A program made the position numbers and the translations under genes. Shown piece by piece: positions 16-24,768 of a stretch of 64,000 nt of DNA. The notes under the pieces were generated by a model. The model searched no databases. It saw nothing but the letters and a program-made list of their open reading frames with translations, and was not told the origin of the DNA. Position 1 is the first letter of the stretch. The number at the start of each line of letters is the position of its first letter. Origin of the DNA: Agromyces mediolanus. GTDB taxonomy: Bacteria > Actinomycetota > Actinomycetes > Actinomycetales > Microbacteriaceae. The stretch covers positions 496,001 through 560,000 of the forward strand of contig NZ_JAMBNX010000001.1 of NCBI RefSeq assembly GCF_023715325.1. The letters run 5' to 3'.

Positions 16-57
16 CCCGGAGTTGCCCGACTTTCATGAAAGTCGGGCAACTCGGGG
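16..57. repeat. Palindrome family copy 1 (3' hairpin)
   Basis: Near-perfect dyad centred on CATG at 35-38. Positions 20-53 are a perfect 34-bp palindrome, extended to 16-57 with one mismatch (19/54). The core arm reads TTGCCCGACTTTCATG. It starts 9 bp beyond the stop of the SDR gene on the minus strand, as expected for a transcription-terminator hairpin. There is no T-tract. It belongs to a six-member family in this window. Confidence 0.85.
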
Positions 58-65
58 TGGGGCGT

Positions 66-806
66 TCAGGTGAGCAGCTGGCCGCCGTCGACCGCGAGGC
101 TCACGCCCGTGATGTGCGCGGCGCCGTCGCTCGCGAGGAAGACGACCGCCGGAGCCACCTCCTCGACCTCGGCGAGCTTGCCCAGGGGGATGCGGCTCGA
201 CCAGGCCTCGCGGGCGGGGGAGCCCTCCGGCATCCCCATCCGCAGCATCGGGGTGAGCACCGGGCCGGGCGCGACCGCGTTCACGCGGATGCCGTGCCCG
301 GCGAGCTCGATCGCCGCCCAGCGGGTGAGCGAGTCCACGGCCGCCTTGCTCGACTCGTAGGCGCCCATCCCCGGCGTCGGCTGCCGGCCGCCGATCGAGG
401 AGATGTTCACGATCGCGCCGCGGGTGCCGTTCGCGATCATGCGGCGGGCGACGGCCTGGGTGATCGTGAAGGTGCCGACGATGTTCACCTCGACGATCGA
501 GCGGTAGGCGTCGGGCCCGAGCTCGGTGAGCGCGCCGTGCACCGAGAGGATGCCGGCGTTGTTCACCAGTACGCCCAGCGGGCCGTGCTCGGCTTCGACC
601 TGCTCGACCGCGCGGGCGGCGGCTTCGGCATCCGTGATGTCGAGCGCGAGGTGCGCGACGCCGAGCTCGTCCGCCGCCACGCGCGCGGCGTCCGCGTCGA
701 CGTCGGCGACGACGACCCGGTCGCCCGCGTCGCGGAACGCGGCGGCGATGCCGCGGCCGATGCCGCCGGCGCCGCCGGTGATGAGCACGATTCGAGGTTC
801 GGACAC
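66..806 (-). CDS. SDR family NAD(P)-dependent oxidoreductase
   Basis: 246 aa classical short-chain dehydrogenase. The nucleotide-binding glycine motif TGGAGGIG lies at about residues 9-16, the NNAG motif near 87, the catalytic Ser in NISS, and the YESSK catalytic Tyr/Lys pair. The C-terminal DGGQLLT is typical of the family. The start is GTG at 806 because AGAAGGAGA lies just upstream on the coding strand; the frame stays open further upstream but no better ribosome site is seen. The substrate cannot be read from the sequence. It is divergent from the aldo/keto reductase gene with a shared 85-bp promoter region containing an 8-bp inverted repeat, so the two may be co-controlled. Confidence 0.93.
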   Translation of the reverse strand: MSEPRIVLITGGAGGIGRGIAAAFRDAGDRVVVADVDADAARVAADELGVAHLALDITDAEAAARAVEQVEAEHGPLGVLVNNAGILSVHGALTELGPDAYRSIVEVNIVGTFTITQAVARRMIANGTRGAIVNISSIGGRQPTPGMGAYESSKAAVDSLTRWAAIELAGHGIRVNAVAPGPVLTPMLRMGMPEGSPAREAWSSRIPLGKLAEVEEVAPAVVFLASDGAAHITGVSLAVDGGQLLT

Positions 807-840
807 GGGATCTCCTTCTGCCGTCGGCGTGCGTCGGTGC

Positions 841-867
841 ACGCTCGTGGTTATATTATACGAGCGT
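841..867. promoter_or_regulatory. Divergent promoter with 8-bp inverted-repeat operator candidate
   Basis: ACGCTCGT (841-848) and its exact reverse complement ACGAGCGT (860-867) flank an 11-bp AT-only core. The core gives a perfect minus-strand -10 TATAAT (860 down to 855) for the SDR gene and TATTAT/TATATT on the plus strand for the aldo/keto reductase. A regulator bound here would block both genes. TAGAAAAA follows directly at 867-874 and recurs at 2721-2728. That it is an operator is inference. Confidence 0.6.
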
Positions 868-891
868 AGAAAAAAGCGACGAGGAGGCCGC

Positions 892-1857
892 ATGACCGTC
901 ACCGTTCCCACCCGCCAGCTCGGCCCAGGCGGGCCGGAGGTGCCCGTCTTCTCCCTCGGGTCTTGGAACACCTGGGACCGCATGGACTTCGACGACGCGG
1001 TCGCGCTGATCCGCCGCGCCCATGAGGCGGGGGCGGCGTTCTTCGACGTGGCGCACTACGACCTGGGCCCGCACGCCGAGCAGGCGACCACTGACCTCAT
1101 CTTCGGCCGCGCCGTGCGCGAGGCCGGACTCGCCCGCGAGGACTACCTGCTCTGCGGCAAGCTCTGGCTCTGGGAGTACCCGCGCGTCGGCTTCGCCGGA
1201 CAGTTCACCACCTCGCTCGAACGGATCGGGGTCGAGCGCGCGGAGTTCGCCGTCGTCGGCGACTATCTCGAGCCGATCGACGTGCGCCGCGTCGTCGACG
1301 ACGTGCAGGCCGAGATCGCGGCCGGCCGGCTCGGCGCCTGGGGCGTCAACAATTGGCGCGCCGACGACCTCGTGCTCGCGCTCGACCACGCCGAGCGCGA
1401 AGGCCTGGTGCCGCCGAGCTTCGCGCAGCTGAAGTACGGCCTCGTGCGCCGCTCGATGGCCGAGGGGCCCGAGTACGGCGAGCTGTTCGCGTCGGGGCGG
1501 CTCGCGCTACAGGCTTCGGATGCCTTCGAGGGCGGCATCCTCGCGGGGAAGACGGTGCCCGGGCGGAAGATCGGCGCCGACGTCGGCGGGATCCGCGAGC
1601 GCATCGTCGCGATCTTCCCCGAGGTGGCTCGGATCGCCGCCGAGCTCGACGCGACCCCGACGCAGCTCGGCATCGCCTTCTGCCTCGCGAACCCCGCGAC
1701 GGCGAACGTGCTCTTCGGCGTCAGCCGGATGGCGCAGCTGGAGGACAACCTCGGCGCGCTCGCCCTGCTCGAGCGGGTGGGCGCCGCGGGCATCCGCGCG
1801 GCGACCGAGGGCCTCCAGCTCGACCAAGCCGTCCGCTCCGACGGCGTCTGGGCGTAG
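892..1857 (+). CDS. Aldo/keto reductase
   Basis: 321 aa, a usual length for a single-domain aldo/keto reductase TIM barrel. The segment FFDVAHYDLGPHAEQ near residue 50 matches the family's Asp/Tyr active-site strand (FDTAxxYG type). CGKLWLW near residue 86 carries the catalytic Lys position. The C-terminal part GVSRMAQLEDNLGAL matches the NADPH-binding G(x)R/K region. The ATG at 892 is preceded by GAGGAGG (881-887). It would reduce aldehydes or ketones with NADPH; the substrate is unknown. It converges on the alpha/beta hydrolase gene, with a palindrome between the two. Confidence 0.9.
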   Translation: MTVTVPTRQLGPGGPEVPVFSLGSWNTWDRMDFDDAVALIRRAHEAGAAFFDVAHYDLGPHAEQATTDLIFGRAVREAGLAREDYLLCGKLWLWEYPRVGFAGQFTTSLERIGVERAEFAVVGDYLEPIDVRRVVDDVQAEIAAGRLGAWGVNNWRADDLVLALDHAEREGLVPPSFAQLKYGLVRRSMAEGPEYGELFASGRLALQASDAFEGGILAGKTVPGRKIGADVGGIRERIVAIFPEVARIAAELDATPTQLGIAFCLANPATANVLFGVSRMAQLEDNLGALALLERVGAAGIRAATEGLQLDQAVRSDGVWA

Positions 1858-1886
1858 CCGCGCGGCCCGTGTCACCCTGCTCCACC

Positions 1887-1928
1887 CCCCGAGTTGCCCG
1901 ACTTTCATGAAAGTCGGGCAACTCGGGG
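1887..1928. repeat. Palindrome family copy 2 (shared 3' hairpin)
   Basis: Perfect 42-bp palindrome (21-bp arms) centred at 1907/1908, lying between two convergent stop codons: 29 bp after the aldo/keto reductase stop and 12 bp from the hydrolase stop. The arms end in CCCCGAG/CTCGGGG. It probably acts as a bidirectional terminator. Confidence 0.88.
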
Positions 1929-1940
1929 TGGGGGGTGGCG

Positions 1941-2669
1941 TCAGGCGAGGAAGTCGAGCACGGCGCGGCGGAACTCGGGGCTCGCGAGTGCGCCCAGGTG
2001 GTCGCCGGGCACCCGCACGAGCTGCCCGCGCGCGACGCCCTCGGCGACGCCGTCGAGGCCGGTGGTCATCGGGTCGTCGGTGCCGGCGACGAAGAGCACC
2101 GGTACGGCCGGCACGTCCTGCGACGGGTCGAAGGGCTCTCGCGCCAGACCGGCGATGAGGCGCGGCAGCGAGGCGTGGTCGCGCCCCGGCGCGCCGATCA
2201 TCGCGGCCATCATGCCGAGCATGGGGTCGGCCGGGTTCTCGCCGCCCAGGGCGCGGACGAGGGCGGCGACGTCGACGCCGGCGAACGGCTCGAAGGGACT
2301 GAGGCCGCCGAGCACGAGGCGCTGCACGCGCGGCTCGACGGCGGCGAGCGCCCAGGCGAGCCGGGCACCGAGGGAGTAGGCGACGACGTCGACCTGGCCG
2401 GACTCGGGGAGGGCGTCACGGATGGCCTGGACGACCGCGCTCGTCGAGGCATCCGCGTCGGGTGTGATGGCGGCGGCGGTGCCGTGGCCGGGCAGGTCGA
2501 CGACGATCGTGTCGCGCCCCGAGGCGGCGATCGCCTCGGCGAGCCCGGTGGCGACGAAGTCGGTCTCGCCGTCGGAGGCGAAGCCGTGCAGCAGCACGAC
2601 CGGGGCGGCGTCGCCGGCTGTCGAGCCGCCGATGGCGGGGAGGGTGCGGGTGCTGACGGTGAGTGGCAT
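1941..2669 (-). CDS. Alpha/beta hydrolase
   Basis: 242 aa alpha/beta-hydrolase fold. The oxyanion-hole segment LLHGFASDG is near residue 28, the nucleophile elbow is AYSLG in VVAYSLGARLA, the acid is probably the Asp in VAGTDDP, and the catalytic His is in VPGDHLG near the C-terminus. This is the MenH/esterase-like subgroup without a large lid. ATG at 2669. The substrate is unknown. It is divergent from the methyltransferase gene, with a 24-bp inverted repeat between them. Confidence 0.9.
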   Translation of the reverse strand: MPLTVSTRTLPAIGGSTAGDAAPVVLLHGFASDGETDFVATGLAEAIAASGRDTIVVDLPGHGTAAAITPDADASTSAVVQAIRDALPESGQVDVVAYSLGARLAWALAAVEPRVQRLVLGGLSPFEPFAGVDVAALVRALGGENPADPMLGMMAAMIGAPGRDHASLPRLIAGLAREPFDPSQDVPAVPVLFVAGTDDPMTTGLDGVAEGVARGQLVRVPGDHLGALASPEFRRAVLDFLA

Positions 2670-2705
2670 GCGTTCGCTTTCGACGGTGAATGAACGGGTG
2701 GATCT

Positions 2706-2729
2706 GTTTTTCTATGTTAGTAGAAAAAC
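2706..2729. promoter_or_regulatory. Perfect inverted repeat in divergent promoter
   Basis: GTTTTTCTA (2706-2714) and TAGAAAAAC (2721-2729) are exact reverse complements with a 6-bp spacer, in a very AT-rich island between the divergent hydrolase and methyltransferase genes. TATGTT on the plus strand (2713-2718) lies inside it and could be a -10. A TetR-family gene ends the same cluster at 3873-4457 and is a candidate ligand-responsive repressor for this site; that link is inference. Confidence 0.6.
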
Positions 2730-2799
2730 GTGTAGCATCGTGCTGAATCCACGACATCGCCGTCCCACGGATACGGGCGGCCGCACAGGAAGCGCAGCC

Positions 2800-3804
2800 A
2801 TGACCGACACCCTCCAGCCCACCGAGCGGACCGCCAGCCCCGCCGCCATCGTCGACATCGCGATCGGCTTCATGGGCGCGAAGCAGCTCATCACCGCGAG
2901 CCGCATCGGCCTGTTCGCCGCGCTCGCCGACGGCCCGCTCGACGCTGAGGCGCTCGCCGCGGCGACCGGGGTGCCGCAGCGCCAGGTGCGCATCCTCGCC
3001 GACAGCATGAACGCGCAGGGCCTGCTCGAGCGCGACGGCGGTCGCTACTCACTCACCCCGGATGCCGCGGCCTACCTCACGGGCGACCGCGCCGAGATCG
3101 ACCTCGGGCCGTTCCTCGCCTTCCTCGGCGACACCTCCTACGAGCAGTGGCGCGGCTACGACCGCACCGTCGACTCCGACGCCCCCGGCGTGCTCGAGCT
3201 CGACGAGGCGGGCTGGGGCCGGTTCCTCGCCGGGGTCATGCGGTACAACGAGCTGCACGCCGACGAGTTCGCCCGCGCCTTCGACGTGGCCGGGCGACGC
3301 TCGCTCCTCGACCTCGGCGGCCTCAGCCCGGCGTTCGCCGTCAACGTGATGCGGGCGAACCCGGAGCTCACGACGCGCTTCGTTGTCGCGCCCGACTTCG
3401 CCGACTCCGTCGCCCAGGCCGTGGCCGAGGCGGGCCTCGCGGACCGCGCCGTCGTCGAGGGCGGCGACACCGAGTCCGTCGAACCGGGTGGCGAGCACGA
3501 CCTCGTCTTCGTGAACCACGTGCTGCACCGCTTCACGGCGGAGCAGAACCGGACCATCCTCGCGAACGCCCGCGCGGCCGCGGCACCCGGTGCGAAGCTC
3601 GCCGTCCTCGACTTCACGCTCGACGACGAGCCGCGCCAGCGCCGCATCGACGCGCTGCACGCGGGGGAGTACTACAACATCGACGGCACCGTGGTGTTCC
3701 CCGAGGCCGAGGTCCGCGAGTGGCTCGAGGCCGCCGGCTGGCGCTACGTGGAGACGATCGCGCTGCCGGGCAGCCCGCGCATCCTCGTCGCCGAGGCGCG
3801 CTGA
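2800..3804 (+). CDS. SAM-dependent O-methyltransferase with winged-helix dimerisation domain
   Basis: 334 aa, the length of acetylserotonin O-methyltransferase-type (COMT-like) enzymes. The N-terminal winged-helix dimerisation region (about residues 10-95) contains the RIGLFAAL and VPQRQVRIL helices. The SAM-binding motif is LLDLGGLSPAF, where most relatives have DxGGGxG. Then come NHVLHRF and the usual LAVLDF strand near the C-terminus. ATG at 2800 with CAGGAAG upstream. It would methylate a hydroxyl group on a small aromatic or secondary metabolite; the substrate is unknown. Confidence 0.88.
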   Translation: MTDTLQPTERTASPAAIVDIAIGFMGAKQLITASRIGLFAALADGPLDAEALAAATGVPQRQVRILADSMNAQGLLERDGGRYSLTPDAAAYLTGDRAEIDLGPFLAFLGDTSYEQWRGYDRTVDSDAPGVLELDEAGWGRFLAGVMRYNELHADEFARAFDVAGRRSLLDLGGLSPAFAVNVMRANPELTTRFVVAPDFADSVAQAVAEAGLADRAVVEGGDTESVEPGGEHDLVFVNHVLHRFTAEQNRTILANARAAAAPGAKLAVLDFTLDDEPRQRRIDALHAGEYYNIDGTVVFPEAEVREWLEAAGWRYVETIALPGSPRILVAEAR

Positions 3805-3827
3805 CCGGCGCTGCCGAGCCCACCCCC

Positions 3828-3871
3828 ACCCCGAGTTGCCCGACTTCCATGGAAGTCGGGCAACTCGGGGT
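3828..3871. repeat. Palindrome family copy 3 (shared 3' hairpin)
   Basis: Perfect 44-bp palindrome (22-bp arms) centred at 3849/3850. It differs from other copies at the centre: TTCCATGGAA instead of TTTCATGAAA, with both arms changed together. It lies between the convergent stops of the methyltransferase (3804) and the TetR gene (3873). Confidence 0.88.
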
Positions 3872-3872
3872 T

Positions 3873-4457
3873 TCAGAGGCGGTCGAAGAAGGCGCGGAGG
3901 TGCGCCTCCTGCAGTGCGGTCGTCGAGGTCTGGGGCGAGATGAGGCTCATGATGTTCGCCCCGACGTTCAGCAGCACGATCTCGTCGACGAGCTGCTCGT
4001 CGCGCGTCACGGTCGTGATGTCGCCGTCCTCGCGCCCTTCCGCGATGTAGCGGGCGAGAGCCTCGCGCCAGACCGCGAGGTGCGCGAGGTAGGCCTCGTG
4101 CAGGGTCTCGTTCGACACGGCTCGCTCCCAGAAGGAGAGCAGCACGCGACCGGACGTGACGCGCTCCTCGTCGAGCGGCATCGCGGCCCAGCAGATCGCG
4201 CGCAACGCCTCGAGACCGCGCTTGCCGGCGACCTCGGCCTCGATGTGCTCGCCCATCATGCCGAGCGAACGCTCGTAGGCGCCCTGGATGATCTCGTCCT
4301 TGCCCGGGAAGTAGTGCTTGAGCGCCCCGTTCGCGAATCCCGCCTCGGCAGCGATCTCACGCATCGTCGCGGCCTCGATGCCGCCCTTGACGATGAGCCG
4401 CCAGGTCACGTCGATGATGTCGCGGCGACGCTGGTCGTGATCGATCACCTTCGGCAT
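3873..4457 (-). CDS. TetR/AcrR family transcriptional regulator
   Basis: 194 aa. The N-terminal TetR helix-turn-helix (about residues 10-55) includes TMREIAAEAGFANGALKHYFPGKDEI, which matches the AcrR-type 'GALKHYF' recognition helix; the ligand-binding domain follows. It is similar in layout to BetI-like TetR_C_6 proteins. ATG at 4457 with GGGAAGAGGG upstream; an upstream in-frame extension lacks a ribosome site. It may control the divergent promoters at 841-867 or 2706-2729. Its own promoter region holds the 21-bp repeat cluster. Confidence 0.9.
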   Translation of the reverse strand: MPKVIDHDQRRRDIIDVTWRLIVKGGIEAATMREIAAEAGFANGALKHYFPGKDEIIQGAYERSLGMMGEHIEAEVAGKRGLEALRAICWAAMPLDEERVTSGRVLLSFWERAVSNETLHEAYLAHLAVWREALARYIAEGREDGDITTVTRDEQLVDEIVLLNVGANIMSLISPQTSTTALQEAHLRAFFDRL

Positions 4458-4545
4458 CCGGCCCTCTTCCCGTTGTCGCGCAGGCGGCGCAGATCGCCGA
4501 CGCTCACGCGTCAACCAGTGTAGGCGAACGGTCGGGGCGGCAGCG

Positions 4546-4690
4546 CTTCGACAAGCTCAGCGAACCACGTGGTTCCCTGAGCTTGTCGAAGGGGGCGCCG
4601 CTGTTGGTTCCCTGAGCTTGTCGAAGGGGGCGCCGCGCTTCGACAAGCTCAGCGAACCATGCGGCGCCGCTTCGACAAGCTCAGCGAACC
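4546..4690. repeat. Cluster of five 21-bp repeats (CTTCGACAAGCTCAGCGAACC)
   Basis: Five copies lie in 145 bp: plus orientation at 4546-4566, 4638-4658 and 4670-4690; inverted at 4571-4591 and 4606-4626. The inverted copies read CCCTGAG where the plus copies predict CGCTGAG. Adjacent opposite copies (4546-4591) can pair into a long hairpin. The cluster lies between the 5' end of the TetR gene and the 3' end of the amidohydrolase gene. From memory, this oligonucleotide family is common between genes in Microbacteriaceae and some other bacteria; I could not check that here. Confidence 0.85.
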
Positions 4691-4694
4691 AGGC

Positions 4695-6359
4695 TCAGCG
4701 CACGTACACGCGGCGCCCGGCGAACCAGGTCTCGGCCACCGTCGTGCGCACGAGCTCCTCCGCGGGGCCCGCGAAGGGGTCGCGATCGAGCACGACGAAG
4801 TCGGCCGACTTGCCCGCGACGAGCGATCCGGTCTCGGCGCCGAGGCCCATCGCCTCGGCGGCGTTGATCGTGAACGCCGCCATCGCCTCGTCGAGCGTGA
4901 TGGCCTGCTCCGGCCACAGCGTGCCGGGGAACACCCCGGCCGGGTCGGCACGGGTCACGAGGCCGTGGATGCCCTCCCACGCGTTCGGCGACTCCGAGAC
5001 CGGCCAGTCCGAGCCGCCCGCGATGAGCGCGCCCGCGTCGAGCAGGGCGCGGTTGGGCTGCATCCGGCCGGCCCGCTCGGCGGGCAGCACCGTCGCGATC
5101 GCCTCGGGGATGACGCCGGGGAACCAGATGAACGGCGACAGGTCGGCCGAGACCCCGAGCTCCGCGAAGCGGGGGATGTCGGACTCGGCGACGAACTGCC
5201 CGTGCGCGACCTGGTAGCGGGTCTCGGTGAAGCCCTCGGCGCGCAGCCGCGCCACGGTGTCGAGCACGAGGCGCACCGCGGCGTCCCCGGAGCAGTGGAT
5301 CTTCGCCGACAGCCCGCGCTCGGCGGTGCGCCGCAGCCAGCCCCAGAGCTCCTCGGGCGGGAGCGTCGTCTCGCCGAGGAAGTGGTCGCCGTGCGCGTCG
5401 TCAGGCAGGTACGGCTCCAGGAAGGCGCCGGTGCGGGCGGGCGGCACGCCGTCGAGGAAGATCTTCACGAAGTCCGGCCGGTGGTGCTCGGTGCGGAACG
5501 CCTCGCCCCGCCAGACGAGTCCCTCGCCGACGGGGTCGTAGCCGAAGATCTGGTCGTTCACCGTCAGGGAGGACACCACCCAGGCGTCCAGCTCGGCATC
5601 CGCGTCGAGGGCGCGCAGCGCCTCGAGGATCTCGAGCGAAACGGCGGCGTCCTGGAACGCGGTGACGCCGTAGCTGTTCAGCAGCTCGACGCCGCGCCTG
5701 GATGCCGCGCGGTGCTGCTCGGCGGTGAGCCGGCGCGTGCGGGCCATGGCCGCTTCGACGGGCAGCCCGGCGGACTCCAGCAGCACGCCGGTCGGCCGCC
5801 CGCTGACCGGGTCGAGCTCGATGACGCCGCCCTCGCCGGGATCGGACTCGGCCGTGATGCCGGCGAGCTCGAGCGCGCGGGAGTTCGCCCAGCGGTTGTG
5901 CCGGGAGTCCTCCATGAGCATCACCGGGCGGCCACCGGATGCCTCGTCGAGTCTGGCCCGGGTCGCCTCGTTCGAGATCGCGGTGCGCAGGGTGCTGCCC
6001 CACGCCCCGCCCGTGATCCAGGCATCGGCGGGCAGCCCGGCCGCGTACTCGCGGACCGCCGCGAGCACCTCCTCGACCGAGCCGGACGACGAGAACGACA
6101 GCTCGAAGAGGTCGGTGCGCCCGGCCAGCGCGTGGTGGTTGTGCACGTCCACGAGGCCGGGCATGAGGAAGGCGCCGTCGAGGGCGCGCCGCTCGGTGCC
6201 CTCGCCCGCGAGCGCGAGCGCGTCGGCATCCGTGCCGACGGCGAGCAGCCGCCCGCCGCCGACCGCGAGGGCCTCGGCCCACGGGGCCGCGGGGTCGCCC
6301 GTCCAGATGCGGCCGCCCGTGAGCACGAGCTCCGCGGGACCGCTGCTCGCCGTCGCCAT
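4695..6359 (-). CDS. YtcJ-like amidohydrolase (amidohydrolase family 3)
   Basis: 554 aa metal-dependent hydrolase of the YtcJ/amidohydrolase_3 type. The metal-binding motif DVHNHHAL lies near residue 76 in place of the common HxH. A likely metal Lys/Asp region is VKIFLDGVPPARTGAF, KIHCSGDAAVRL carries the His, and the terminal metal Asp lies in ALIAGGSDWPV. The ATG at 6359 overlaps the MoaF stop (TGATG), implying translational coupling. It would hydrolyse an amide or cyclic amide, possibly releasing the amine oxidised by the neighbouring amine oxidase; this is inference. The 21-bp repeats follow its stop. Confidence 0.88.
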   Translation of the reverse strand: MATASSGPAELVLTGGRIWTGDPAAPWAEALAVGGGRLLAVGTDADALALAGEGTERRALDGAFLMPGLVDVHNHHALAGRTDLFELSFSSSGSVEEVLAAVREYAAGLPADAWITGGAWGSTLRTAISNEATRARLDEASGGRPVMLMEDSRHNRWANSRALELAGITAESDPGEGGVIELDPVSGRPTGVLLESAGLPVEAAMARTRRLTAEQHRAASRRGVELLNSYGVTAFQDAAVSLEILEALRALDADAELDAWVVSSLTVNDQIFGYDPVGEGLVWRGEAFRTEHHRPDFVKIFLDGVPPARTGAFLEPYLPDDAHGDHFLGETTLPPEELWGWLRRTAERGLSAKIHCSGDAAVRLVLDTVARLRAEGFTETRYQVAHGQFVAESDIPRFAELGVSADLSPFIWFPGVIPEAIATVLPAERAGRMQPNRALLDAGALIAGGSDWPVSESPNAWEGIHGLVTRADPAGVFPGTLWPEQAITLDEAMAAFTINAAEAMGLGAETGSLVAGKSADFVVLDRDPFAGPAEELVRTTVAETWFAGRRVYVR

Positions 6360-7192: not shown

Positions 7193-7279
7193 GATGCTCC
7201 AGTCGTCGTCATCGTCGGGGTGGTCTCAGGTTCAGCGGCTCAGCAGCTCAGCGGCTCAGGGGCGCAGGGGCGCAGGGGG

Positions 7280-9567: not shown

Positions 9568-9571
9568 TTCC

Positions 9572-12094: not shown

Positions 12095-12910
12095 ATGGGC
12101 TACGCGGGATCATCGACGGCGGGCAAGGTCGTCGTCATCACGGGCGGCGGCACCGGCATCGGCGCCGCCATCGCGGAGCGCTACGCCGCGGAGGGCGCGC
12201 ACGTCGTCGTCGTCGGCCGCCGCCGCGAACCGCTCGAGCGCGTCGCGAACGCGATCGGCGCGCTCGCCGTCGAGGCCGACGCCGCCGACGCCGAGTCGGC
12301 GAAGCGCGCGGTCGCCGAGGTGCTCGCCCGGCACGGCCGCCTCGACGTGCTCGTCGCGAACGCCGGCGGCCACGGCTTCGCCGCCGTCGGCGACACCGAC
12401 GACGCCGCCTGGGAGGCCGCGATGCGGGCGAACCTCACGACCGCCTTCGTGATGGCCAGGGAGAGCCTGCCCGCCCTCATCGAGTCGAAGGGGCAGATCG
12501 TCGTCATCTCCTCGCTCGCGGGACTCTTCGCCGGGCCGTCCGTCGCCGGGTACACCGTCGGCAAGCACGCCCTCATCGGCCTGACCCGCACGCTTGCGCG
12601 CGACTACGGGCGGCACGGCGTGCGGGTGAACGCCGTCTGCCCCGGCTGGGTGCAGACCCCCATGGCCGACGAGGAGATGGACGAGTTCGCCAGGCACGCC
12701 GGTTTCGACGGCGGGCGCGAGGCCGGCTACGCCGCGGTCACCGCCGACGTGCCGCTGCGCCGGGCCGCCGCCCCCGCGGAGATCGCCTCGATCGTGCGCT
12801 TCCTCGGCTCGGGGGAGTCCTCATACATGACCGGCTCCGTGATCGTCGCGGACGGCGGCGCGCACGTCGTCGACCTGCCGACGATCGCCTTCGAGCACGC
12901 CGGCATGTGA
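12095..12910 (+). CDS. SDR family oxidoreductase
   Basis: 271 aa classical SDR. TGGGTGIG lies near residue 16, NAGG near 85, the Ser in VISSLAG, and YTVGK is the Tyr/Lys motif. ATG at 12095 preceded by AGGAAGGAG. It is co-directional with the previous SDR, so the two may form a two-gene operon. The pair is enclosed by the amine oxidase/permease genes on one side and the ABC importer on the other, which suggests shared physiology but does not identify the substrate. Confidence 0.9.
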   Translation: MGYAGSSTAGKVVVITGGGTGIGAAIAERYAAEGAHVVVVGRRREPLERVANAIGALAVEADAADAESAKRAVAEVLARHGRLDVLVANAGGHGFAAVGDTDDAAWEAAMRANLTTAFVMARESLPALIESKGQIVVISSLAGLFAGPSVAGYTVGKHALIGLTRTLARDYGRHGVRVNAVCPGWVQTPMADEEMDEFARHAGFDGGREAGYAAVTADVPLRRAAAPAEIASIVRFLGSGESSYMTGSVIVADGGAHVVDLPTIAFEHAGM

Positions 12911-12930: not shown

Positions 12931-12978
12931 AGAACCCGAGTTGCCCGACTTTCATGAAAGTCGGGCAACTCCGGTTCT
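12931..12978. repeat. Palindrome family copy 4 (shared 3' hairpin)
   Basis: 48-bp dyad centred at 12954/12955 with one mismatch (12937/12972). The flanks are AGAACC/GGTTCT rather than CCCC/GGGG, so the outer arms have changed in a compensated way. It lies between the convergent stops of the SDR (12910) and livF (12995). Confidence 0.87.
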
Positions 12979-12994: not shown

Positions 12995-13696
12995 TCAGGC
13001 GGGGGCGCCGCCGAGGTAGGCGCGGTGCAGCAGGCTCGCGTCCTCGCGGAGCGTCGCGGCCGGGCCCTGGAAGCTCACCTGGCCGCTCGCGACGACGAGC
13101 GCCTCGCTGGCGAGGCCGAGCGCGAGGTGCGTGAACTGCTCGACGAGGAGCACCCCGACGCCCTGCTCGGCGATCTCCGACACGATCGGCAGCAGCCGCA
13201 TGAACACCACGGGCGCGAGCCCGAGCGACATCTCGTCGATGAGCAGGAACCGCGGCCTGGCGGCGAAGGCCCTGGCGAGCACCACCATCTGCTGCTCGCC
13301 GCCGGAGAGCAGCGCGGTTGGCGCGTCGATGCGCTTCTCGAGCTCGGGGAATCGGGCGAGCGCCGCGTCGACCTCGGCCGGGGTGCGCGCGGTGAGGGAG
13401 AGGTTCTCCCGCACCGTCAGTGAGGGGAACACCGCCCGCCCCTGCTCGATGTGCACGATGCCCTGCTTCGCGCGGGCGACCCGGGACAGCCGCTCGATCG
13501 GCGTGCCGTCGAGGCGGATCGTGCCCGCCGAAATCGGCGCGACCCCCGAGATGCCGTCGAGCAGGCTCGTCTTGCCGGCACCGTTGGGGCCCACGAGGGC
13601 GGTCACCCGCCCCTGCTCGAGTGTGAAGGACACGCCCTGGATGACGGGACCCGCGCCGCGGCTCACCGCGACGTCGTCGATGATCAACGCACTCAC
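12995..13696 (-). CDS. LivF-type ABC transporter ATP-binding protein
   Basis: 233 aa branched-chain amino acid-type ATPase. Walker A is GPNGAGKTS near residue 36, the signature is LLSGGEQQM, Walker B is FLLIDEMSLGLAP, and the H-loop region is LLVEQ. The GTG start at 13696 overlaps the stop of the LivM-LivG fusion by 4 bp (GTGA). It is the last gene of the importer operon livK-livH-livMG-livF. The substrate may be an amine, amide or amino acid used by this locus; LivFGHMK-type systems also carry ureas, amides and aromatic acids. Confidence 0.93.
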   Translation of the reverse strand: MSALIIDDVAVSRGAGPVIQGVSFTLEQGRVTALVGPNGAGKTSLLDGISGVAPISAGTIRLDGTPIERLSRVARAKQGIVHIEQGRAVFPSLTVRENLSLTARTPAEVDAALARFPELEKRIDAPTALLSGGEQQMVVLARAFAARPRFLLIDEMSLGLAPVVFMRLLPIVSEIAEQGVGVLLVEQFTHLALGLASEALVVASGQVSFQGPAATLREDASLLHRAYLGGAPA

Positions 13697-19176: not shown

Positions 19177-19216
19177 CCAGGGTTGCCCAACTTTCATGAA
19201 AGTTGGGCAACCCTGG
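19177..19216. repeat. Palindrome family copy 5 (3' hairpin)
   Basis: Perfect 40-bp palindrome centred at 19196/19197. The inner arm reads GCCCAACTTT where other copies read GCCCGACTTT, with the matching change in the other arm, and the outer arms are CCAGGG/CCCTGG. It lies 59 bp beyond the AraC stop (19276) and upstream of the MoaF gene, so it separates two tandem minus-strand genes rather than a convergent pair. Confidence 0.88.
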
Positions 19217-19275
19217 GGAGGTGCGGCGGCTGGGCGGCCGGAGGCGGGAGCCCGAGCCCGAGCCCGGGGGACGGC

Positions 19276-20235
19276 TCAGCGGGCGCGGAGCTCGCTCGGC
19301 GCGTGCCCGTAGGCGGCCTTGAACGCGCGGCTGAAGTGCGCGGCGTCGACGAAGCCCCAGCGCGCCGCGATCGCCGCGACGGGGCGGTCGGCGTAGAGCG
19401 GGTTCATCAGGTCGCGGCGGCAGCGCTCGAGCCGCCGCGTGCGGATCCACGTCGACACGGTGGTGCCCTGCGACTGGAAGAGCCCGTGCAGGTGCCGGGT
19501 GGAGATGTAGTGCGCGGCCGCGATGGAGGCGGGCCCGAGCTCGGTCGAGGCGAGGTTCTCGTCGATGTACGCGCGGATGCGCTGCATGAGCGCCTGGTGC
19601 GGGTCGCCGCCCTCGCGGTCGAGGTCGAGCTCACGGGCGAACACGGTCGTCACGAGGTCGAGGGCGCTGTGGGTGAGCCGGACGCCGGCCGAGCCGTGCA
19701 GCTGTTCGAGGTTGCCGGCGAGCTGCGTGAGGTACGGCACCACGAGCGCGCCGAGCCCCTCGTCGCCCGCCATGCGGACGGCGGTCAGCTGCCCGACGAC
19801 CTCCGAGGGGAGGTCGATCAGGTGCTTCGGGAACATCACGACCATGGTGCGGAATTCAGCGTCGAAGACGAGCGAGTAGGGCCGGTTGGTGTCGTAGACG
19901 GCGAGGTCGCCCGGGCGCAGCACCGCCTCGCGGTTGTCCTGGATGAGGATGCCGGAGCCGGCGAGCATGAGGCTGAGCTTGAACGAACCGCGGTCGCCGC
20001 GGGCGATGAGCTCGGGGGTGCGCTCGACGACGTGGTCGGTCGCCCGGACTTCGCTCACGTGCACCTCGTCGACGTTCGCCGCGCGGATGATGCCGCGGAA
20101 CGGGTCGGGGTGCTCGCTCGTCACCTGCAGCGGCACGAAGGCGTCGCTCACGGCGGTGCGGAAGGCGGAGAAATCACGCGCGAGGATGGTCGAGACGGGG
20201 CCTTGCTCGGGACGAGCGGCGGGGGAGCTGTGCAC
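19276..20235 (-). CDS. AraC family transcriptional regulator (FeaR-like)
   Basis: 319 aa. The N-terminal ligand/dimer domain is of the AraC-binding-like type (PF14525 style), including GSGILIQDNREAVLRPGDLAVYDTNRPY, a stretch typical of FeaR-like regulators. The C-terminal double helix-turn-helix (about residues 215-315) has ISTRHLHGLFQSQG and the FVDAAHFSRAFKAAYGHAPSE signature. The GTG start at 20235 follows GAGGTG. A TATACA -10 candidate is at 20276-20271. In E. coli FeaR activates the tynA amine oxidase; by analogy this probably activates the amine locus. That target is inference. Confidence 0.92.
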   Translation of the reverse strand: MHSSPAARPEQGPVSTILARDFSAFRTAVSDAFVPLQVTSEHPDPFRGIIRAANVDEVHVSEVRATDHVVERTPELIARGDRGSFKLSLMLAGSGILIQDNREAVLRPGDLAVYDTNRPYSLVFDAEFRTMVVMFPKHLIDLPSEVVGQLTAVRMAGDEGLGALVVPYLTQLAGNLEQLHGSAGVRLTHSALDLVTTVFARELDLDREGGDPHQALMQRIRAYIDENLASTELGPASIAAAHYISTRHLHGLFQSQGTTVSTWIRTRRLERCRRDLMNPLYADRPVAAIAARWGFVDAAHFSRAFKAAYGHAPSELRAR

Positions 20236-20409
20236 GGGTTCACCTCGATGTGCTCGGAACGCGACTGCGTTGTATACGATCCGTAGCGGCGAGCTTAGCA
20301 GGCCGCCGCGGGCGCGGCACCCGCCCCGGAACGGGGCACTCCCGGCGTCGCTGCACTCCCGGTCAAGCCCGCTGCGCCCGCGGCACTGCGCCCGCGGTCC
20401 GGCGCTCGC

Positions 20410-20415
20410 TAGCGT
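20410..20415 (+). promoter_or_regulatory. Leaderless-type -10 (TAGCGT)
   Basis: TAGCGT is followed by exactly 6 bp and then the GTG of the membrane protein at 20422, and there is no Shine-Dalgarno sequence. This spacing puts the predicted transcript start at the start codon, as in actinobacterial leaderless mRNAs. Confidence 0.5.
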
Positions 20416-20421
20416 CGGAAC

Positions 20422-20961
20422 GTGCTCGCCCCCGTCCTCATCGCCGCCGCCCTCGGGCTCACGGCGGCGTCCGGCGTCTGCGCGGGCCTCGCCGTCGTGC
20501 GCCGCGCCGCGCCGAAGCGGGTCGTGCCCGCCGCGATCGTGATGGCGGTCTCCGCGGTGGACATGCTGCTGCCCGGCACCGTGCTCGCTCCGGTCGCGTG
20601 GGGCGCGCTCCTGCTGCTCCTCGCACTCGGCCTGCTGCTCGGTCGCACCGCCCCGGCAGCCCGTCGCGAGCTCGCCTGGCACGCCGGCTCGACCCTCGTG
20701 ATGGCGGCGATGTGGTTCGGGATGGCGGTGCCCGGCGCGGCCGCCATCACCGATCCGGGCGGGGCGGCCCACGGCGGACACGGCGGGCACGGCGGCCCGA
20801 TGCTCGGGGTGCTCCTCCTCCTCGCGGCGCTCGCGCTCGCCGTGGCGGCGTTCCGGCACCTCCCGCGGGCCCGTCGTCAGGAGGCGGGCATCGCGGCGTG
20901 GCGGCATCCGCTGATGGCCGTCGCGATGCTGGCCATGCTCGCGGCCATGCCCGCCTGGTGA
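20422..20961 (+). CDS. Hypothetical membrane protein with His/Gly loop
   Basis: 179 aa with about five hydrophobic segments (roughly residues 2-25, 35-52, 55-73, 88-108 and 125-145). A periplasmic-side or loop stretch AHGGHGGHGG separates two of them and could bind metal. The layout resembles small actinobacterial DUF5134-type membrane proteins, but I cannot confirm the family. GTG at 20422 is probably leaderless. It is divergent from the AraC gene and unrelated in function as far as can be seen. Confidence 0.75.
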   Translation: MLAPVLIAAALGLTAASGVCAGLAVVRRAAPKRVVPAAIVMAVSAVDMLLPGTVLAPVAWGALLLLLALGLLLGRTAPAARRELAWHAGSTLVMAAMWFGMAVPGAAAITDPGGAAHGGHGGHGGPMLGVLLLLAALALAVAAFRHLPRARRQEAGIAAWRHPLMAVAMLAMLAAMPAW

Positions 20962-21075
20962 ACGGATGGCCTGTCCGCTGCCGCGCGCGGCGCGAACTGA
21001 GCGACGCTCGCCGCACGGTACACTGAGGGCGGGCCGAGGTGCCGCCGCGTCCAGTCCTTCCCACTCCGCGGGTCC

Positions 21076-21081
21076 GTACAA
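21076..21081 (+). promoter_or_regulatory. -10 candidate (TACAAT) for gap
   Basis: TACAAT sits 71 bp upstream of the GTG of the GAPDH gene, in a 191-bp gap. A second weaker hexamer, TACACT, is at 21019-21024. No good -35 match is visible at either. The predicted leader is about 65 nt, ending with the GAAGGA ribosome site at 21141-21146. Confidence 0.4.
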
Positions 21082-21152
21082 TCCCAGACACCCCGTATTC
21101 GAGTGCGGTCGACGCTGCCCACCTGTGCGCGCGCGACCGAGAAGGACGCAAC

Positions 21153-22649
21153 GTGAGCCACGAGTTCGAAGCCCGACGTCAGGACTGGATCGCCCGAGAG
21201 GAGCTCGCCGAGCGGATGATCCCGCTCATCGGCGGCCTCTACCGAGACCACGGAGTGGTCACGAGCATCCACGGCCGGCGGCTCATCAACCGCTCGGCCG
21301 TCGAACTGCTGAAGGCGCACCGCTTCGCCCGCCAGGCCGGCGACGTCGAGCTCGACCTCGAGGACACCATGCGCGTGCTCGAGGCGCTCCGCGACATCGC
21401 GCCCGGCCCGGCCTCGATCGACGTCGCCCGCCTCGTCACCCGCTACGCCGACGCCGCGGGCGAGCTCGACGACGCCGCCGCGCTCGCCGACTTCCTGCGC
21501 GCGGAGCTCGCGCCCGTGCTCGTCGACGTCGACGCCGCCCCGGCCGAAGGCACCGATGTCGTGCTCTACGGCTTCGGTCGCATCGGGCGCCTGCTCGCCC
21601 GCATCCTCATCGCGCACTCCGGCGGCGGCCAGGGCCTCCGCCTGCGCGCCATCGTCGTCCGCCGCGGCAGCGACAACGACCTCCAGAAGCGGGCCAGCCT
21701 GCTCCGTCGCGACTCGGTGCACGGCCCGTTCCAGGGCACGATCGAGGTCGACGAGGAGGCGAACACGATCCTCGCGAACGGCACGCTCATCCAGGTGATC
21801 TACTCCGACGACCCGGCATCGATCGACTACACCGCGTACGGCATCCGCGACGCGATCGTCGTCGACAACACCGGCCGTTGGCGCGACGAGGCCGGACTCG
21901 AGCAGCACCTGCGCTCGACGGGGGTCTCGCGCGTGCTCCTCACCGCCCCCGGCAAGGGCGCCATCAAGAACATCGTGCACGGCATCAACCACGAGGTGAT
22001 CGAGCCGGGCGACCGCATCCTCTCCGCCGCCTCGTGCACCACGAACGCGATCACCCCGGTGCTCGCGGCGATCGACGAGGCGTACGGCGTCGTCCGCGGC
22101 CACGTCGAGACGGTGCACTCCTTCACGAACGACCAGAACCTCATCGACAACTTCCACAAGGGCGACCGTCGCGGCCGCTCCGCGGTGCTGAACATGGTCA
22201 TCGCCGAGACGGGCGCCGCCAAGGCCGTGTCGAAGGCGCTGCCGCAGCTCGAGGGCAAGCTCACCGGCTCCGCGATCCGGGTGCCGACGCCGGACGTGTC
22301 GCTCGCCATCCTGAACCTGCAGCTCGAGCGGCCGACCGACAAGGCGACCCTGAACAGCTTCCTGCGGCAGACCTCGCTGACCTCGCCGCTGCGCCAGCAG
22401 ATCGACTACATCGAGTCGCCCGAGGTCGTGTCGACCGACTTCGTCGGCTCGAACCGTGCGGGCATCGTCGACGGGCTCGCGACGATCGCCGACGGCACCG
22501 ATGTCGTGCTGTACGTCTGGTACGACAACGAGTACGGCTACTCGTGCCAGGTGGTCCGCGTCATCGAGGCGATGGCGGGCAGTCACCCGGTCGTGCTCCC
22601 GGAGCGCGTGCCGGTGGTCGTCGAGCGCGAGATCGCTCCGGTCCCCTGA
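21153..22649 (+). CDS. gap: Glyceraldehyde-3-phosphate dehydrogenase, N-terminally extended (GapB-type)
   Basis: 498 aa, about 150 residues longer than classical GAPDH. An alpha-helical N-terminal extension (1-130) precedes the Rossmann domain (YGFGRIGRLLARIL). The catalytic Cys295 is in SAASCTTNAIT, followed by HSFTNDQNL and the NAD-domain C-terminus WYDNEYGYSCQV. The size and extension match the ~480-aa GapB enzymes of Corynebacterium and relatives, which favour the gluconeogenic direction with NADP. GTG at 21153 with GAAGGA upstream. No glycolytic operon partners are adjacent. Confidence 0.93.
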   Translation: MSHEFEARRQDWIAREELAERMIPLIGGLYRDHGVVTSIHGRRLINRSAVELLKAHRFARQAGDVELDLEDTMRVLEALRDIAPGPASIDVARLVTRYADAAGELDDAAALADFLRAELAPVLVDVDAAPAEGTDVVLYGFGRIGRLLARILIAHSGGGQGLRLRAIVVRRGSDNDLQKRASLLRRDSVHGPFQGTIEVDEEANTILANGTLIQVIYSDDPASIDYTAYGIRDAIVVDNTGRWRDEAGLEQHLRSTGVSRVLLTAPGKGAIKNIVHGINHEVIEPGDRILSAASCTTNAITPVLAAIDEAYGVVRGHVETVHSFTNDQNLIDNFHKGDRRGRSAVLNMVIAETGAAKAVSKALPQLEGKLTGSAIRVPTPDVSLAILNLQLERPTDKATLNSFLRQTSLTSPLRQQIDYIESPEVVSTDFVGSNRAGIVDGLATIADGTDVVLYVWYDNEYGYSCQVVRVIEAMAGSHPVVLPERVPVVVEREIAPVP

Positions 22650-22663
22650 GCGGGTTCGCGACG

Positions 22664-22669
22664 TAGGCT
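22664..22669 (+). promoter_or_regulatory. Leaderless-type -10 (TAGGCT)
   Basis: TAGGCT, 6 bp, then the ATG of the thiolase gene at 22676. The purine-rich spacer GAGGGA touches the ATG and is too close to act as a ribosome site, favouring leaderless translation. Confidence 0.55.
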
Positions 22670-22675
22670 GAGGGA

Positions 22676-23857
22676 ATGAGCACCGAAGCCGTCATCGTCG
22701 ACGTCGTGCGCACTCCGGTCGGGCGGGGCAAGCCCGGCGGGATGCTCTCGGCCGTGCATCCGGTCGACCTCCTCGCGGGGGTCCTCGACGCGATCGTCGG
22801 GCGCAACGATCTCGACCCCGCGCTCGTCGACGACGTCATCGCCGGCTGCGTGAGCCAGGTCGGCGAGCAGTCGATGAACCTCGCGCGCAGCGCGGTGCTG
22901 GCCGCGGGGTTCCCGGACACGGTGCCGGCGACCACGATCGACCGGCAGTGCGGGTCGAGCCAGCAGGCCGTCGCCTTCGCCGCGCAGGCGGTGCTCGCGG
23001 GGCAGGCCGAGATCGTCATCGCCTGCGGCGTGGAGTCGATGAGCCGGGTGCCGCTCGGCTCGTCTCTGCAGGGGGCCGACCCGCACGGCGAACGGCTGCG
23101 CGCCCGTTACCCGGAGGGCCTCGTCAACCAGGGCGTCGCCGCGGAGCTCATCGCGGTGCGCTGGGGCCTCGACCGGGATCGCCTGGACGCCTACGCGGCG
23201 CGTTCGCACGAGCTCGCAGCCGCGGCGGCCGAGTCCGGCGCCTTCGCCACGGAGCTCGTGCCGGTGCCGGGCGTCGACCGCCTGAGCGACGAGACCGTCC
23301 GACCGGGCACCACCGTCGAGGGGCTCGCCGGGCTGCCTGCGGCCTTCCGCACCGACGAGCTCGCCGCCCGCTTCCCCGAGCTCGACTGGCGCATCATCGC
23401 GGGCAGCTCTTCGCCGCTCAGCGACGGCGCCTCGGCCGCGCTCATCATGAGCCGGGCCGCGGCGGAACGGCTGGGTCTGCCACCGCGCGCCCGGTTCCAC
23501 AGCTCGATCGTCGTCGGCAGCGATCCCATGACGATGCTCACCGGCGTCATCCCCGCCACGGCTCGCGTGCTCGAACGAGCGGGGCTCGGCCACGACGACA
23601 TCGACGCCTACGAGGTCAACGAGGCGTTCGCCTCGGTGCCGCTCGCCTGGCTGGCGGACACCGGCGCCGACCCGGCGAAGCTCAACCCGCGCGGGGGAGC
23701 GATCGCGCTCGGGCACGCGCTCGGCTCCTCGGGCACGCGCCTGCTCACCACGCTCGTGAACCAGCTCGAGGCGAGCGGCGGCCGCTACGGGCTCCAGACG
23801 ATGTGCGAGGGCGGCGGGATGGCGAACGCGATGATCATCGAGCGGACGGCGTCGTGA
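22676..23857 (+). CDS. Thiolase family protein (acetyl-CoA acyltransferase)
   Basis: 393 aa, the standard thiolase length. The acyl-accepting Cys92 is in [14 protein letters not shown] lies near residue 318, His347 is in [14 protein letters not shown], and the second Cys377 is in [10 protein letters not shown]. It cleaves 3-ketoacyl-CoA or condenses acyl-CoAs. It is followed 67 bp later by a hydroxyacyl-CoA dehydrogenase-type SDR, so the two likely form the last steps of a beta-oxidation-like route. ATG at 22676 appears leaderless. Confidence 0.94.
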
Positions 23858-23924
23858 ACGCCGACCGCGCCGGGCGGCGGGTCGCCGTCGCCCCATCGGC
23901 ACACGACGAAGGGATTCTCCTGCA

Positions 23925-24713
23925 ATGGAACTGACCGGCACCTCCGCCATCGTCACCGGAGCGGCTTCCGGCCTCGGCCGGGCGACCGCGCGCGCACTCG
24001 TCGACGGAGGCGCGTCCGTCGTGCTCGTCGATCTGCCCGGCCCCCGGGGTGAGGAGACCGCCGCCGAGCTCGGCGCCGCGGCGCAGTTCGTCGCCGCCGA
24101 CGTCGCGGACGAGGCGCAGGTGCAGGCCGCGGTCGAGGCGGCGAGCGCGCTCGGCCCGCTGCGCGTGGCCGTGAACTGCGCCGGCATCGCCACCGGCAAT
24201 CGCACGGTCGGTCGCGAGGGGCCGGCCCCCCTCGATGTCTTCGAGCGGACCATCCGCGTGAACCTCGTCGGCACCTTCAACGTGACCCGGCTCGCCGCCG
24301 CTGCGATGGCGCAGACCGAGCCGGCCACCGCGGGGGTCGAGGGCGGCCCGGCGACCCCGGAGCGCGGCGTGATCGTGAACACCGCCTCGGTCGCCGCCTT
24401 CGACGGGCAGATCGGGCAGGCCGCCTACTCGGCGTCGAAGGGCGGCGTCGCCGCCATGACGCTGCCGCTGGCCCGTGACCTCTCGAAGCTGCTCATCCGG
24501 GTCGTCACGATCGCCCCCGGCATCTTCGAGACGCCGATGATGGCGGGGATGCCGCAGGAGGTTCAGGACTCGCTCGGGGCCCAGGTGCCTCATCCCTCCC
24601 GGCTCGGCTCCCCGGCCGAGTACGCGGACCTGGTGCGCGCGATCGTGCGCAACCCGATGCTGAACGGCGAGACGATCCGACTCGACGGCGCCATCCGCAT
24701 GCAGCCCAAGTAG
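23925..24713 (+). CDS. SDR, 3-hydroxyacyl-CoA dehydrogenase type (HSD10-like)
   Basis: 262 aa. TGAASGLG lies near residue 11, NCAG is present, the catalytic Ser is in [14 protein letters not shown], and YSASK is the Tyr/Lys motif. The stretch [20 protein letters not shown] and the end [10 protein letters not shown] match type-2 (HSD17B10-like) 3-hydroxyacyl-CoA dehydrogenases. It pairs logically with the upstream thiolase: oxidation of 3-hydroxyacyl-CoA, then thiolysis. ATG at 23925. Confidence 0.9.
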
Positions 24714-24728
24714 CCGCTCGCTCCCCAC

Positions 24729-24768
24729 AGCGACTTGCCCGACTTTCATGAAAGTCGGGCAAGTCGCT
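24729..24768. repeat. Palindrome family copy 6 (shared 3' hairpin)
   Basis: Perfect 40-bp palindrome centred at 24748/24749. The outer arms AGCGAC/GTCGCT differ from all other copies while remaining fully paired, and the core TTGCCCGACTTTCATG is unchanged. It lies between the convergent stops at 24713 and 24787. This is the last copy in the window. Confidence 0.88.

What the first reader, a model, noticed from the sequence alone, without database searches (positions are those of the whole stretch)
16..24768. Six-copy palindrome family with compensated arm changes, confined to the first 25 kb
Perfect or near-perfect 34-48-bp palindromes lie at 16-57, 1887-1928, 3828-3871, 12931-12978, 19177-19216 and 24729-24768. 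They share the core TTGCCC(G/A)ACTT(T/C)CAT and its complement, yet the outer arms differ (CCCCGAG, AGAACC-GAG, CCAGGG, AGCGAC) and every change is matched in the opposite arm. That points to selection on hairpin structure, not on sequence. All are 1-60 bp downstream of stop codons; four of six sit between convergent genes. None has a T-tract and none occurs after 25 kb, where gene ends use unrelated GC hairpins. They may be a mobile or spreading terminator class, or a mark of a shared origin for this region.
Basis: partly seen in the sequence, partly recalled or inferred. Interest (0 to 1): 0.75.

Follow-up and report, generated by a model that had tools for sequence, protein, structure and literature searches.

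The report
Clade-specific gene-end palindrome repeats in Agromyces
The six palindromes are copies of a short repeat scattered about fifty to a hundred times through the genomes of three closely related soil bacteria (Agromyces), mostly just after genes, where they would fold into hairpins that probably mark the ends of gene transcripts; it looks like a new family of a known kind of bacterial repeat rather than a new mechanism.

Summary
All six palindromes are at the stated places. They belong to a genome-wide family: 110 copies in the window's own genome, 93 in A. soli, 51 in A. mediolanus, and none within 3 mismatches in the other 57 of 60 Agromyces genomes searched. "Confined to the first 25 kb" holds only inside the window. 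The compensated-arm claim is partly right: single copies keep matching arms (own 24 of 26), tandem units mostly do not (7 of 28), and the three arm types are old subfamilies that rarely change between orthologues. In-place compensation does occur, mainly in A. mediolanus. Most copies sit at gene 3' ends, median 14-18 bp from a stop. They are inherited at fixed sites (9 of 10 loci shared with A. soli in one syntenic block) with a few gains or losses. One three-unit array lies in frame inside a nadB-like gene. No Y1/RAYT transposase was found in 60 genomes. Best reading: a REP-like repeat that spread in the ancestor of three species and now acts as a two-way 3'-end hairpin without U-tract. Position and pairing are shown; termination is inferred.

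The parts
16..57 (.). Copy 1, arm class GAG/CTC, one unmatched outer pair; between the + gene ending at about window position 4 and the - gene 66-788 (short-chain dehydrogenase): convergent
   Evidence: A. soli and A. mediolanus have it at the orthologous site, the latter with a compensated T-A to G-C change
1887..1928 (.). Copy 2, arm class GAG, perfect palindrome; convergent between 892-1857 (+, aldo/keto reductase) and 1941-2669 (-, alpha/beta hydrolase)
   Evidence: folds at -49.5 kcal/mol
3828..3871 (.). Copy 3, arm class GAG, core variant CTTCCATGGAAG; convergent between 2800-3804 (+, O-methyltransferase) and 3873-4457 (-, TetR)
12931..12978 (.). Copy 4, arm class GAG, one unmatched pair; convergent between 12095-12910 (+, short-chain dehydrogenase) and 12995-13696 (-, ABC transporter ATPase)
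   Evidence: A. mediolanus orthologue has 6 core changes, 4 of them in compensated pairs
19177..19216 (.). Copy 5, arm class GGG/CCC, core variant with A-T at pair 7; codirectional, 62 bp after the stop of 19276-20235 (-, AraC-type regulator)
   Evidence: no copy at this site in A. soli or A. mediolanus
24729..24768 (.). Copy 6, arm class GAC/GTC, perfect palindrome; convergent between 23925-24713 (+, short-chain dehydrogenase) and 24787-25764 (-)
   Evidence: shared with A. soli, compact site without a copy in A. mediolanus

Best explanation
A REP-like (repetitive extragenic palindrome) family, found so far in one three-species clade of Agromyces. The conserved unit is about 34 bp: a 28-nt palindrome plus three bases on each side drawn from three classes (GAG, GAC, GGG). 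It apparently multiplied before the three species split, by an unidentified route and with no Y1/RAYT transposase still present, and has since been inherited mostly at fixed sites. Most copies lie just after stop codons. There the RNA of either strand would fold into a hairpin (15 conserved pairs, 18 or more in the six window copies) without a U-tract, and would work as a two-way 3'-end element: stopping RNA polymerase, protecting the mRNA 3' end, or both. Shown: copies, positions, inheritance, pairing potential and compensation. Inferred: activity in RNA, and spread by past transposition or copying.
For: Copy counts and clade restriction. Convergent gaps enriched: own 21 of 38 loci, A. soli 28 of 57, A. 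mediolanus 8 of 28, against 22, 14 and 19% of gap bases (P 5e-7, 1e-16, 0.013); codirectional loci nearer the stop than the next start in 9/12 (P 0.15), 16/19 (P 0.004) and 10/11 (P 0.01); of convergent plus codirectional loci 29/33, 42/47 and 17/19 lie within 30 bp of a stop. Orthologous sites shared: in a 138-kb block 9 of 10 own loci in A. soli and 6 of 10 in A. mediolanus. In-place paired changes among single-unit loci: 12 of 21 core differences own/A. mediolanus, 10 of 24 A. soli/A. mediolanus, 4 of 17 own/A. soli (the three comparisons share branches, so they are not independent). Covariation above shuffles and slides on 39 hand-chosen copies; weaker but present on all 146 N-free copies. 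Outgroup G418 has unrelated hairpins at the gene ends of copies 1 and 6, and a weaker one seen by eye at copy 2. Other gene-end hairpins in sampled stretches of eight genomes also lack U-tracts, so the absence is normal there.
Against: No transcript data. The core is more conserved in sequence than a hairpin alone seems to require. G-U versus A-C intermediates on the transcribed strand of codirectional copies are 21 versus 13, or 15 versus 11 without two doubtful copies: not decisive. Exceptions to the 3'-end rule: three tandem units in frame inside a nadB-like gene, copies shared by own and A. soli about 17-70 bp before LysR-, IclR- and prmC-like starts, and two copies inside the kdpC-kdpD gap of the own genome. 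Three of the six A. mediolanus copies shared in the block have drifted (4-6 mismatches) and four loci have no copy there.
Confidence: 0.6

Rival explanations
1. Inert remnant of a selfish MITE/REP-like element. Copies landed anywhere, and those in promoters and coding regions were purged, leaving gene ends; the hairpin has no role of its own.
For: In-frame insertion tolerated in a variable linker of a nadB-like gene; tandem arrays with mixed arms; copies in leaders and in the kdp operon gap; private copy 5 with no copy at that site in two relatives.
Against: Compensated core changes between orthologues, core divergence far below that of positions 5-10 bp outside and matched arms in single copies of own and A. 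soli suggest constraint.
Confidence: 0.22
2. The dyad is a DNA binding site for a protein (nucleoid, chromosome-organising or regulatory), placed between genes to stay out of the way of transcription.
For: The core is near-invariant in sequence, symmetrical, and changes often occur on both halves.
Against: Median 14-18 bp from stop codons is tighter than needed to avoid genes. A. mediolanus copies drift with pairing retained. No candidate protein was sought.
Confidence: 0.13
3. Independent, convergent origin of ordinary terminators that happen to look alike, or a regional marker of one acquired segment.
For: Local clustering: 10 of 14 C11 loci in 120 kb.
Against: A 28-nt core repeated 110 times with 0 reverse-control hits, on many contigs and in two further species.
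Confidence: 0.02

Closest known systems
REPs (repetitive extragenic palindromes), GTAG and CGTC superfamilies (PMC3733652: abstract, one full results section and found passages read)
   Same: Short palindromes in high copy; mostly between convergent or codirectional genes, close to 3' ends; singles and groups; occasional copies in frame inside genes; CGTC REPs too have no dedicated transposase.
   Different: No unpaired GTAG or CGTC tag at one end; conserved stem of 15 pairs with a 4-nt loop, against stems of 5-13 bp (GTAG) or 8-9 bp (CGTC) in the paper's table; symmetrical; no Y1/RAYT gene found in 60 Agromyces genomes.
Rickettsia palindromic elements (RPE), as described in PMC3733652 (section read)
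   Same: Palindromic units, also grouped, inserted in frame in a conserved protein; here a nadB-like gene with three 48-bp units encoding ELPDFHESRASRD-like repeats.
   Different: Almost all copies here are extragenic; only one clear in-gene case was seen among the loci examined.
Intrinsic transcription terminators with compensatory evolution (PMC5381666, abstract read)
   Same: Gene-end hairpins, paired changes, G-U intermediates present.
   Different: No U-tract, one shared near-invariant core in 51 to 110 copies per genome, two-way symmetry.

Membership tests
REP, broad sense | 20-40 bp palindromic repeat, many copies per genome, mainly intergenic | tested here: met
   34-bp conserved unit; 110, 93 and 51 copies; mostly intergenic
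REP, GTAG/CGTC tagged | Unpaired GTAG or CGTC tag at one end | tested here: not met
   In the 14 nt outside the arm triplet, 292 flanks of 146 copies: GACG 15, CGTC 9, CTAC 3, GTAG 1, with no fixed position
REP, RAYT-mobilised | Y1 (REP-associated) transposase gene in the genome | tested here: not met
   PF01797: 0 of 60 Agromyces genomes; positive in 5 of 14 control genomes
MITE | Parent insertion sequence with the same ends | tested here: inconclusive
   Half-site AAGTYGGGCAA occurs 105 + 107 times in the own genome; the 100 rows listed lie nearly all within palindromes, so no separate ends were seen, but the rest of the list was not shown
MITE | Target-site duplication at filled versus empty sites | tested here: inconclusive
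   Compact sites at own C11:520735 (A. mediolanus) and kdpC-kdpD (A. soli, A. mediolanus) show no clean duplication; CCGCT flanks the first
RPE-like | In-frame insertion in a protein gene | tested here: met
   nadB-like gene: 3 units in own and A. soli, 1 eroded unit in A. mediolanus, none recognised by eye in 9 outgroup sequences
Canonical intrinsic terminator | Stable hairpin just after the stop codon | tested here: met
   -37.6 to -49.5 kcal/mol at the six sites; median 14-18 bp from stop for convergent and codirectional loci
Canonical intrinsic terminator | U-tract after the hairpin | tested here: not met
   T fraction in the 8 nt after the hairpin: own family 0.234 (5 of 47 with 4 or more T), A. 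soli family 0.211 (2 of 16), A. mediolanus family 0.344 (2 of 8); other own hairpins 0.225 (2 of 30)
Canonical intrinsic terminator | Transcripts end at the site | not testable with these tools
   No RNA data
DNA uptake sequence | Single oriented half-sites scattered through the genome | tested here: not met
   The 100 half-sites listed of 212 are nearly all in palindromes, and the total is close to two per palindrome

The most novel reading that the evidence does not exclude
A palindromic repeat that spreads without any Y1/RAYT-type enzyme and takes over gene ends: in one clade it supplies 50 to 110 of the 3'-end hairpins per genome, at some sites where a related species carries unrelated hairpins, while its own core stays fixed by a sequence-specific partner (RNA- or DNA-binding) in addition to base pairing.
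Probability: 0.2. Interest if true: 0.65.

Novelty: new member of a known kind. Interest (0 to 1): 0.4.

Why it matters
It gives a three-species series in which a repeat has become a large part of the gene-end hairpins of a high-GC actinobacterium, with filled, eroded and empty sites at orthologous places. That makes two open questions testable: how transposase-less palindromic repeats multiply, and whether hairpins without a U-tract end transcripts in these bacteria. No description of this family was seen in the searches made: sequence terms in the held library gave 18 papers, of which the 15 listed are by title not repeat studies; Agromyces, palindrome, repeat and intergenic terms gave 4,472 papers holding three of four, of which only the top 15 were seen; searches covered related topics; Rfam on the first 26 kb gave nothing at family threshold.

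Tried and rejected
Uptake-sequence idea: rejected because the half-sites listed lie almost only in palindromes. RAYT-driven REP: rejected, 0 of 60 genomes. Phage or plasmid origin: no match in viral contigs (exact 20-mer), plasmids or phages (42-base query).

Wider superfamily: a covariance model from 39 copies, chosen by hand and leaning to matched arms, gave hits in 13 further Agromyces genomes, 1 to 11 rows each with the two strands counted apart (only about the best 101 candidates per genome were scored). 10 of the 13 were looked at again. Their outer stems resemble CGAGTYGCCC/GGGCRACTC. A gapped pattern for that stem hit 16 of 398 family genomes, but the reversed control also hit 16 by my count, so a family-wide superfamily is not claimed. 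The best single relative, in G418, lies in the kdpC-kdpD gap, where the own genome has two copies and A. soli, A. mediolanus and G427 none.

Regional origin: rejected. RNA versus DNA by G-U asymmetry: undecided. A first alignment included one outgroup stretch by mistake and was not used further. Two copies with 8 mismatches (one each in A. soli and A. mediolanus) are probably not family members; they are and one orthologue pair, and were dropped, with one 6-mismatch A. mediolanus copy. Several A. mediolanus loci contain runs of N: four of the six 'inside gene' calls run through N in the printed sequence, and five of the six 'absent' calls that start from A. mediolanus show all or part of a copy in the target (the sixth is unclear).

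Other palindrome families in relatives: 200 to 280 kb of each of four other Agromyces genomes and 60 kb of G418 gave no comparable family by shared 11-mers among hairpins, though G401 has two small ones. tRNA genes next to the divergent copies: none.
Full report
WHAT IS THERE. All six palindromes are present at the stated coordinates; four are perfect and two have one unmatched outer pair. They share a 28-nt core. The window is bases 496001-560000 of contig C11 of a 4.04-Mb genome in 89 contigs. The core with up to 3 mismatches occurs 110 times in that genome, and 0 times when read backwards. In 60 genomes of the genus, three carry it: the own genome (110), G433 (93) and G426 (51); the other 57 have none. 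Contig lengths identify G433 as Agromyces soli KACC 16215 and G426 as A. mediolanus JCM 3346. In an even sample of 398 family genomes, ten of them from the genus, only the own genome has it. There is no match in viral contigs, plasmids or phages.

THE REGIONAL CLAIM. Within the window all copies lie in the first 25 kb, but the next are at C11:488879 and C11:565774, and copies are on many contigs. C11 is nevertheless patchy: 10 of 14 loci lie in 120 of 809 kb (P about 3e-6 under uniform placement, with the interval chosen after the fact). The A. soli syntenic block carries the matching loci, so the patchiness there is inherited.

ANATOMY. I examined 157 copies (own 54, A. soli 70, A. mediolanus 33) from loci picked because they carry copies or from one syntenic block, so these are not all copies. 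The core is nearly invariant. Pairs 7, 10 and 12 show changed pairs on both sides as well as single-side changes. The three bases next to the core fall mainly in three classes, GAG, GAC and GGG. Single copies have matching classes on the two arms (own 24 of 26, A. soli 39 of 46, A. mediolanus 14 of 25 with N runs counted as other), while units of tandem arrays, mostly 44-51 bp apart, often do not (matched: own 7 of 28, A. soli 14 of 23, A. mediolanus 2 of 6; Fisher P 4e-7 for own and 0.04 for A. soli). Further out, pairing is close to shuffle expectation apart from positions -4 and -6. The count on 39 chosen copies gave 89.6% paired cells and 12 of 22 pairs with changes on both sides; that set leans to matched arms. 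RNA folds of the six sites give -37.6 to -49.5 kcal/mol.

POSITION. With a codon-based gene caller, loci collapsed and at most 4 mismatches: own 38 loci = 21 convergent, 12 codirectional, 3 divergent, 1 inside a gene, 1 edge; A. soli 57 = 28, 19, 5, 2, 3; A. mediolanus 28 = 8, 11, 2, 6, 1, with N runs behind at least four of the six 'inside'. Convergent gaps hold 22, 14 and 19% of gap bases. Among convergent and codirectional loci the median distance to the nearer stop codon is 18, 16 and 14 bp. Codirectional loci are nearer the stop than the next start in 9 of 12 (not significant alone), 16 of 19 and 10 of 11. Exceptions are real. Own and A. soli share copies just before LysR- and IclR-type regulator starts (names from reading the proteins, recalled, not from a family search) and before a prmC-like gene (name recalled). 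A three-unit array lies in frame inside an L-aspartate oxidase-like gene (nadB, name recalled) encoding ELPDFHESRASRD-like repeats. A. soli has three units with substitutions, A. mediolanus one eroded unit, and nine outgroup sequences carry other, variable linker sequences at that place.

INHERITANCE. In the 138-kb block C11:482000-619999 there are 10 own loci (13 copies). Nine have a copy at the orthologous place in A. soli and six in A. mediolanus, one of them eroded. All 9 A. soli loci and all 6 A. mediolanus loci found in the matching stretches have an own counterpart. Copy 5 of the window is absent in both relatives. Over all held loci, chosen for carrying copies and so biased to sharing, own to A. 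soli was scored 21 shared and 2 absent (one of the two shows a partial copy), own to A. mediolanus 11 and 4, A. soli to A. mediolanus 23 and 3; the reverse searches gave A. soli to own 21 and 0, A. mediolanus to own 9 and 2, A. mediolanus to A. soli 18 and 4. Core divergence between single-unit orthologues without N is 17 of 392 (own/A. soli), 15 of 140 (own/A. mediolanus) and 20 of 308 positions (A. soli/A. mediolanus). The three arm bases differ at 4 of 84, 0 of 30 and 1 of 66, positions 5-10 bp outside the core at 62 of 168, 28 of 60 and 49 of 132 (ungapped), and flanking, mostly coding DNA at 8.2, 6.8 and 5.6%. The arm classes are therefore old subfamilies. In-place compensation is seen in the core: 4 of 17, 12 of 21 and 10 of 24 differences lie in pairs whose two partners both changed (single-unit loci only: 14, 8 and 19; array loci 7, 3 and 4 left out; the comparisons share branches).

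AT THE SAME GENE ENDS IN OUTGROUPS. G418 has unrelated hairpins at the positions of copies 1 and 6, the latter a 48-bp palindrome, and a weaker one seen by eye at copy 2; G422 has none there among the hairpins listed. In sampled stretches of eight genomes the non-family gene-end hairpins are followed by 19-29% T, and the family by 21-23% in own and A. soli and 34% over 8 sites in A. mediolanus, so U-less hairpins are normal for the genus. That fits a gene-end hairpin role for the repeat without proving termination.

HOW IT SPREAD. No Y1/RAYT transposase is found in 60 genomes. The half-sites listed are nearly all inside palindromes, so no parent element with the same ends was seen. Junctions at sites without a copy show no clean duplication. 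Outgroup G418 has a related palindrome in the kdpC-kdpD gap (gene names recalled), the only model hit in that genome, where the own genome has two copies and A. soli, A. mediolanus and G427 none, so relatives of the repeat probably existed before it multiplied. The route is unknown.

COMPARISON. The closest described kind is the REP family. The paper on GTAG and CGTC REPs reports the same preference for gaps after genes, grouped units, in-gene copies, and a class without a dedicated transposase (PMC3733652; abstract, section on genome distribution, and found passages read). The tag and the transposase were tested and not met, so I file this as REP-like in the broad sense. Compensatory evolution of terminators is known from Bacillus cereus (PMC5381666, abstract read). 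Nothing in Rfam reached its family threshold in the first 26 kb. Literature searches showed no description of this repeat in the results listed.

VERDICT. A real, genome-wide, clade-specific repeat: a new member of a known kind, most likely working as a two-way 3'-end hairpin. Interest is moderate.

Noticed in passing
window 4546-4684: A second, unrelated palindromic repeat (CTTCGACAAGCTCAG...) in alternating tandem copies; 46 hits in the own genome and 73 in A. mediolanus, 0 to 5 in the other 38 genomes of a 40-genome sample that did not include A. soli. REP-like layout, again with no Y1 transposase found.
   Followed up: partly
own C11:573569-573692 (L089), A. soli C1:2356202-2356325 (L105): Three tandem 48-bp palindromic units in frame inside a nadB-like gene, adding repeated ELPDFHESRASRD segments to a variable linker.
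   Followed up: yes
L175 (G418) and L194 (own): kdpC-kdpD gap: one diverged palindrome in G418, two family copies in the own genome, compact gap in A. soli, A. mediolanus and G427.
   Followed up: partly
L093:3149, L028:1299; L096:7736, L073:1120: Conserved copies about 20-32 bp upstream of LysR- and IclR-type regulator starts in own and A. soli, in the leader rather than after a gene; possible effect on the regulators' expression.
   Followed up: partly
L133-L142 (G401): Another Agromyces has its own small palindrome families (a ~60-bp one with CGGAGATCGCCACGGATTCGGATGGA-like arms, and GCGTATCGAGACC...GGTCTCGATACGC), about four copies each in 200 kb.
   Followed up: no
window 30017-30046, 38448-38488; L087:18962-19009; G422, G401 and G432 hairpins: Hairpins with GGATGCC/GGCATCC in the stem recur in several Agromyces species with otherwise different sequences.
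   Followed up: no
L075:6818-6845 (A. soli): The centre of the palindrome supplies ATG AAA GTC GGG CAA (MKVGQ) and my gene caller took it as a gene start; possible annotation trap or start-codon donation.
   Followed up: no
G232 and G185, control columns: The reversed control pattern has 9 and 4 hits in two family genomes, hinting at another palindromic repeat family there.
   Followed up: no
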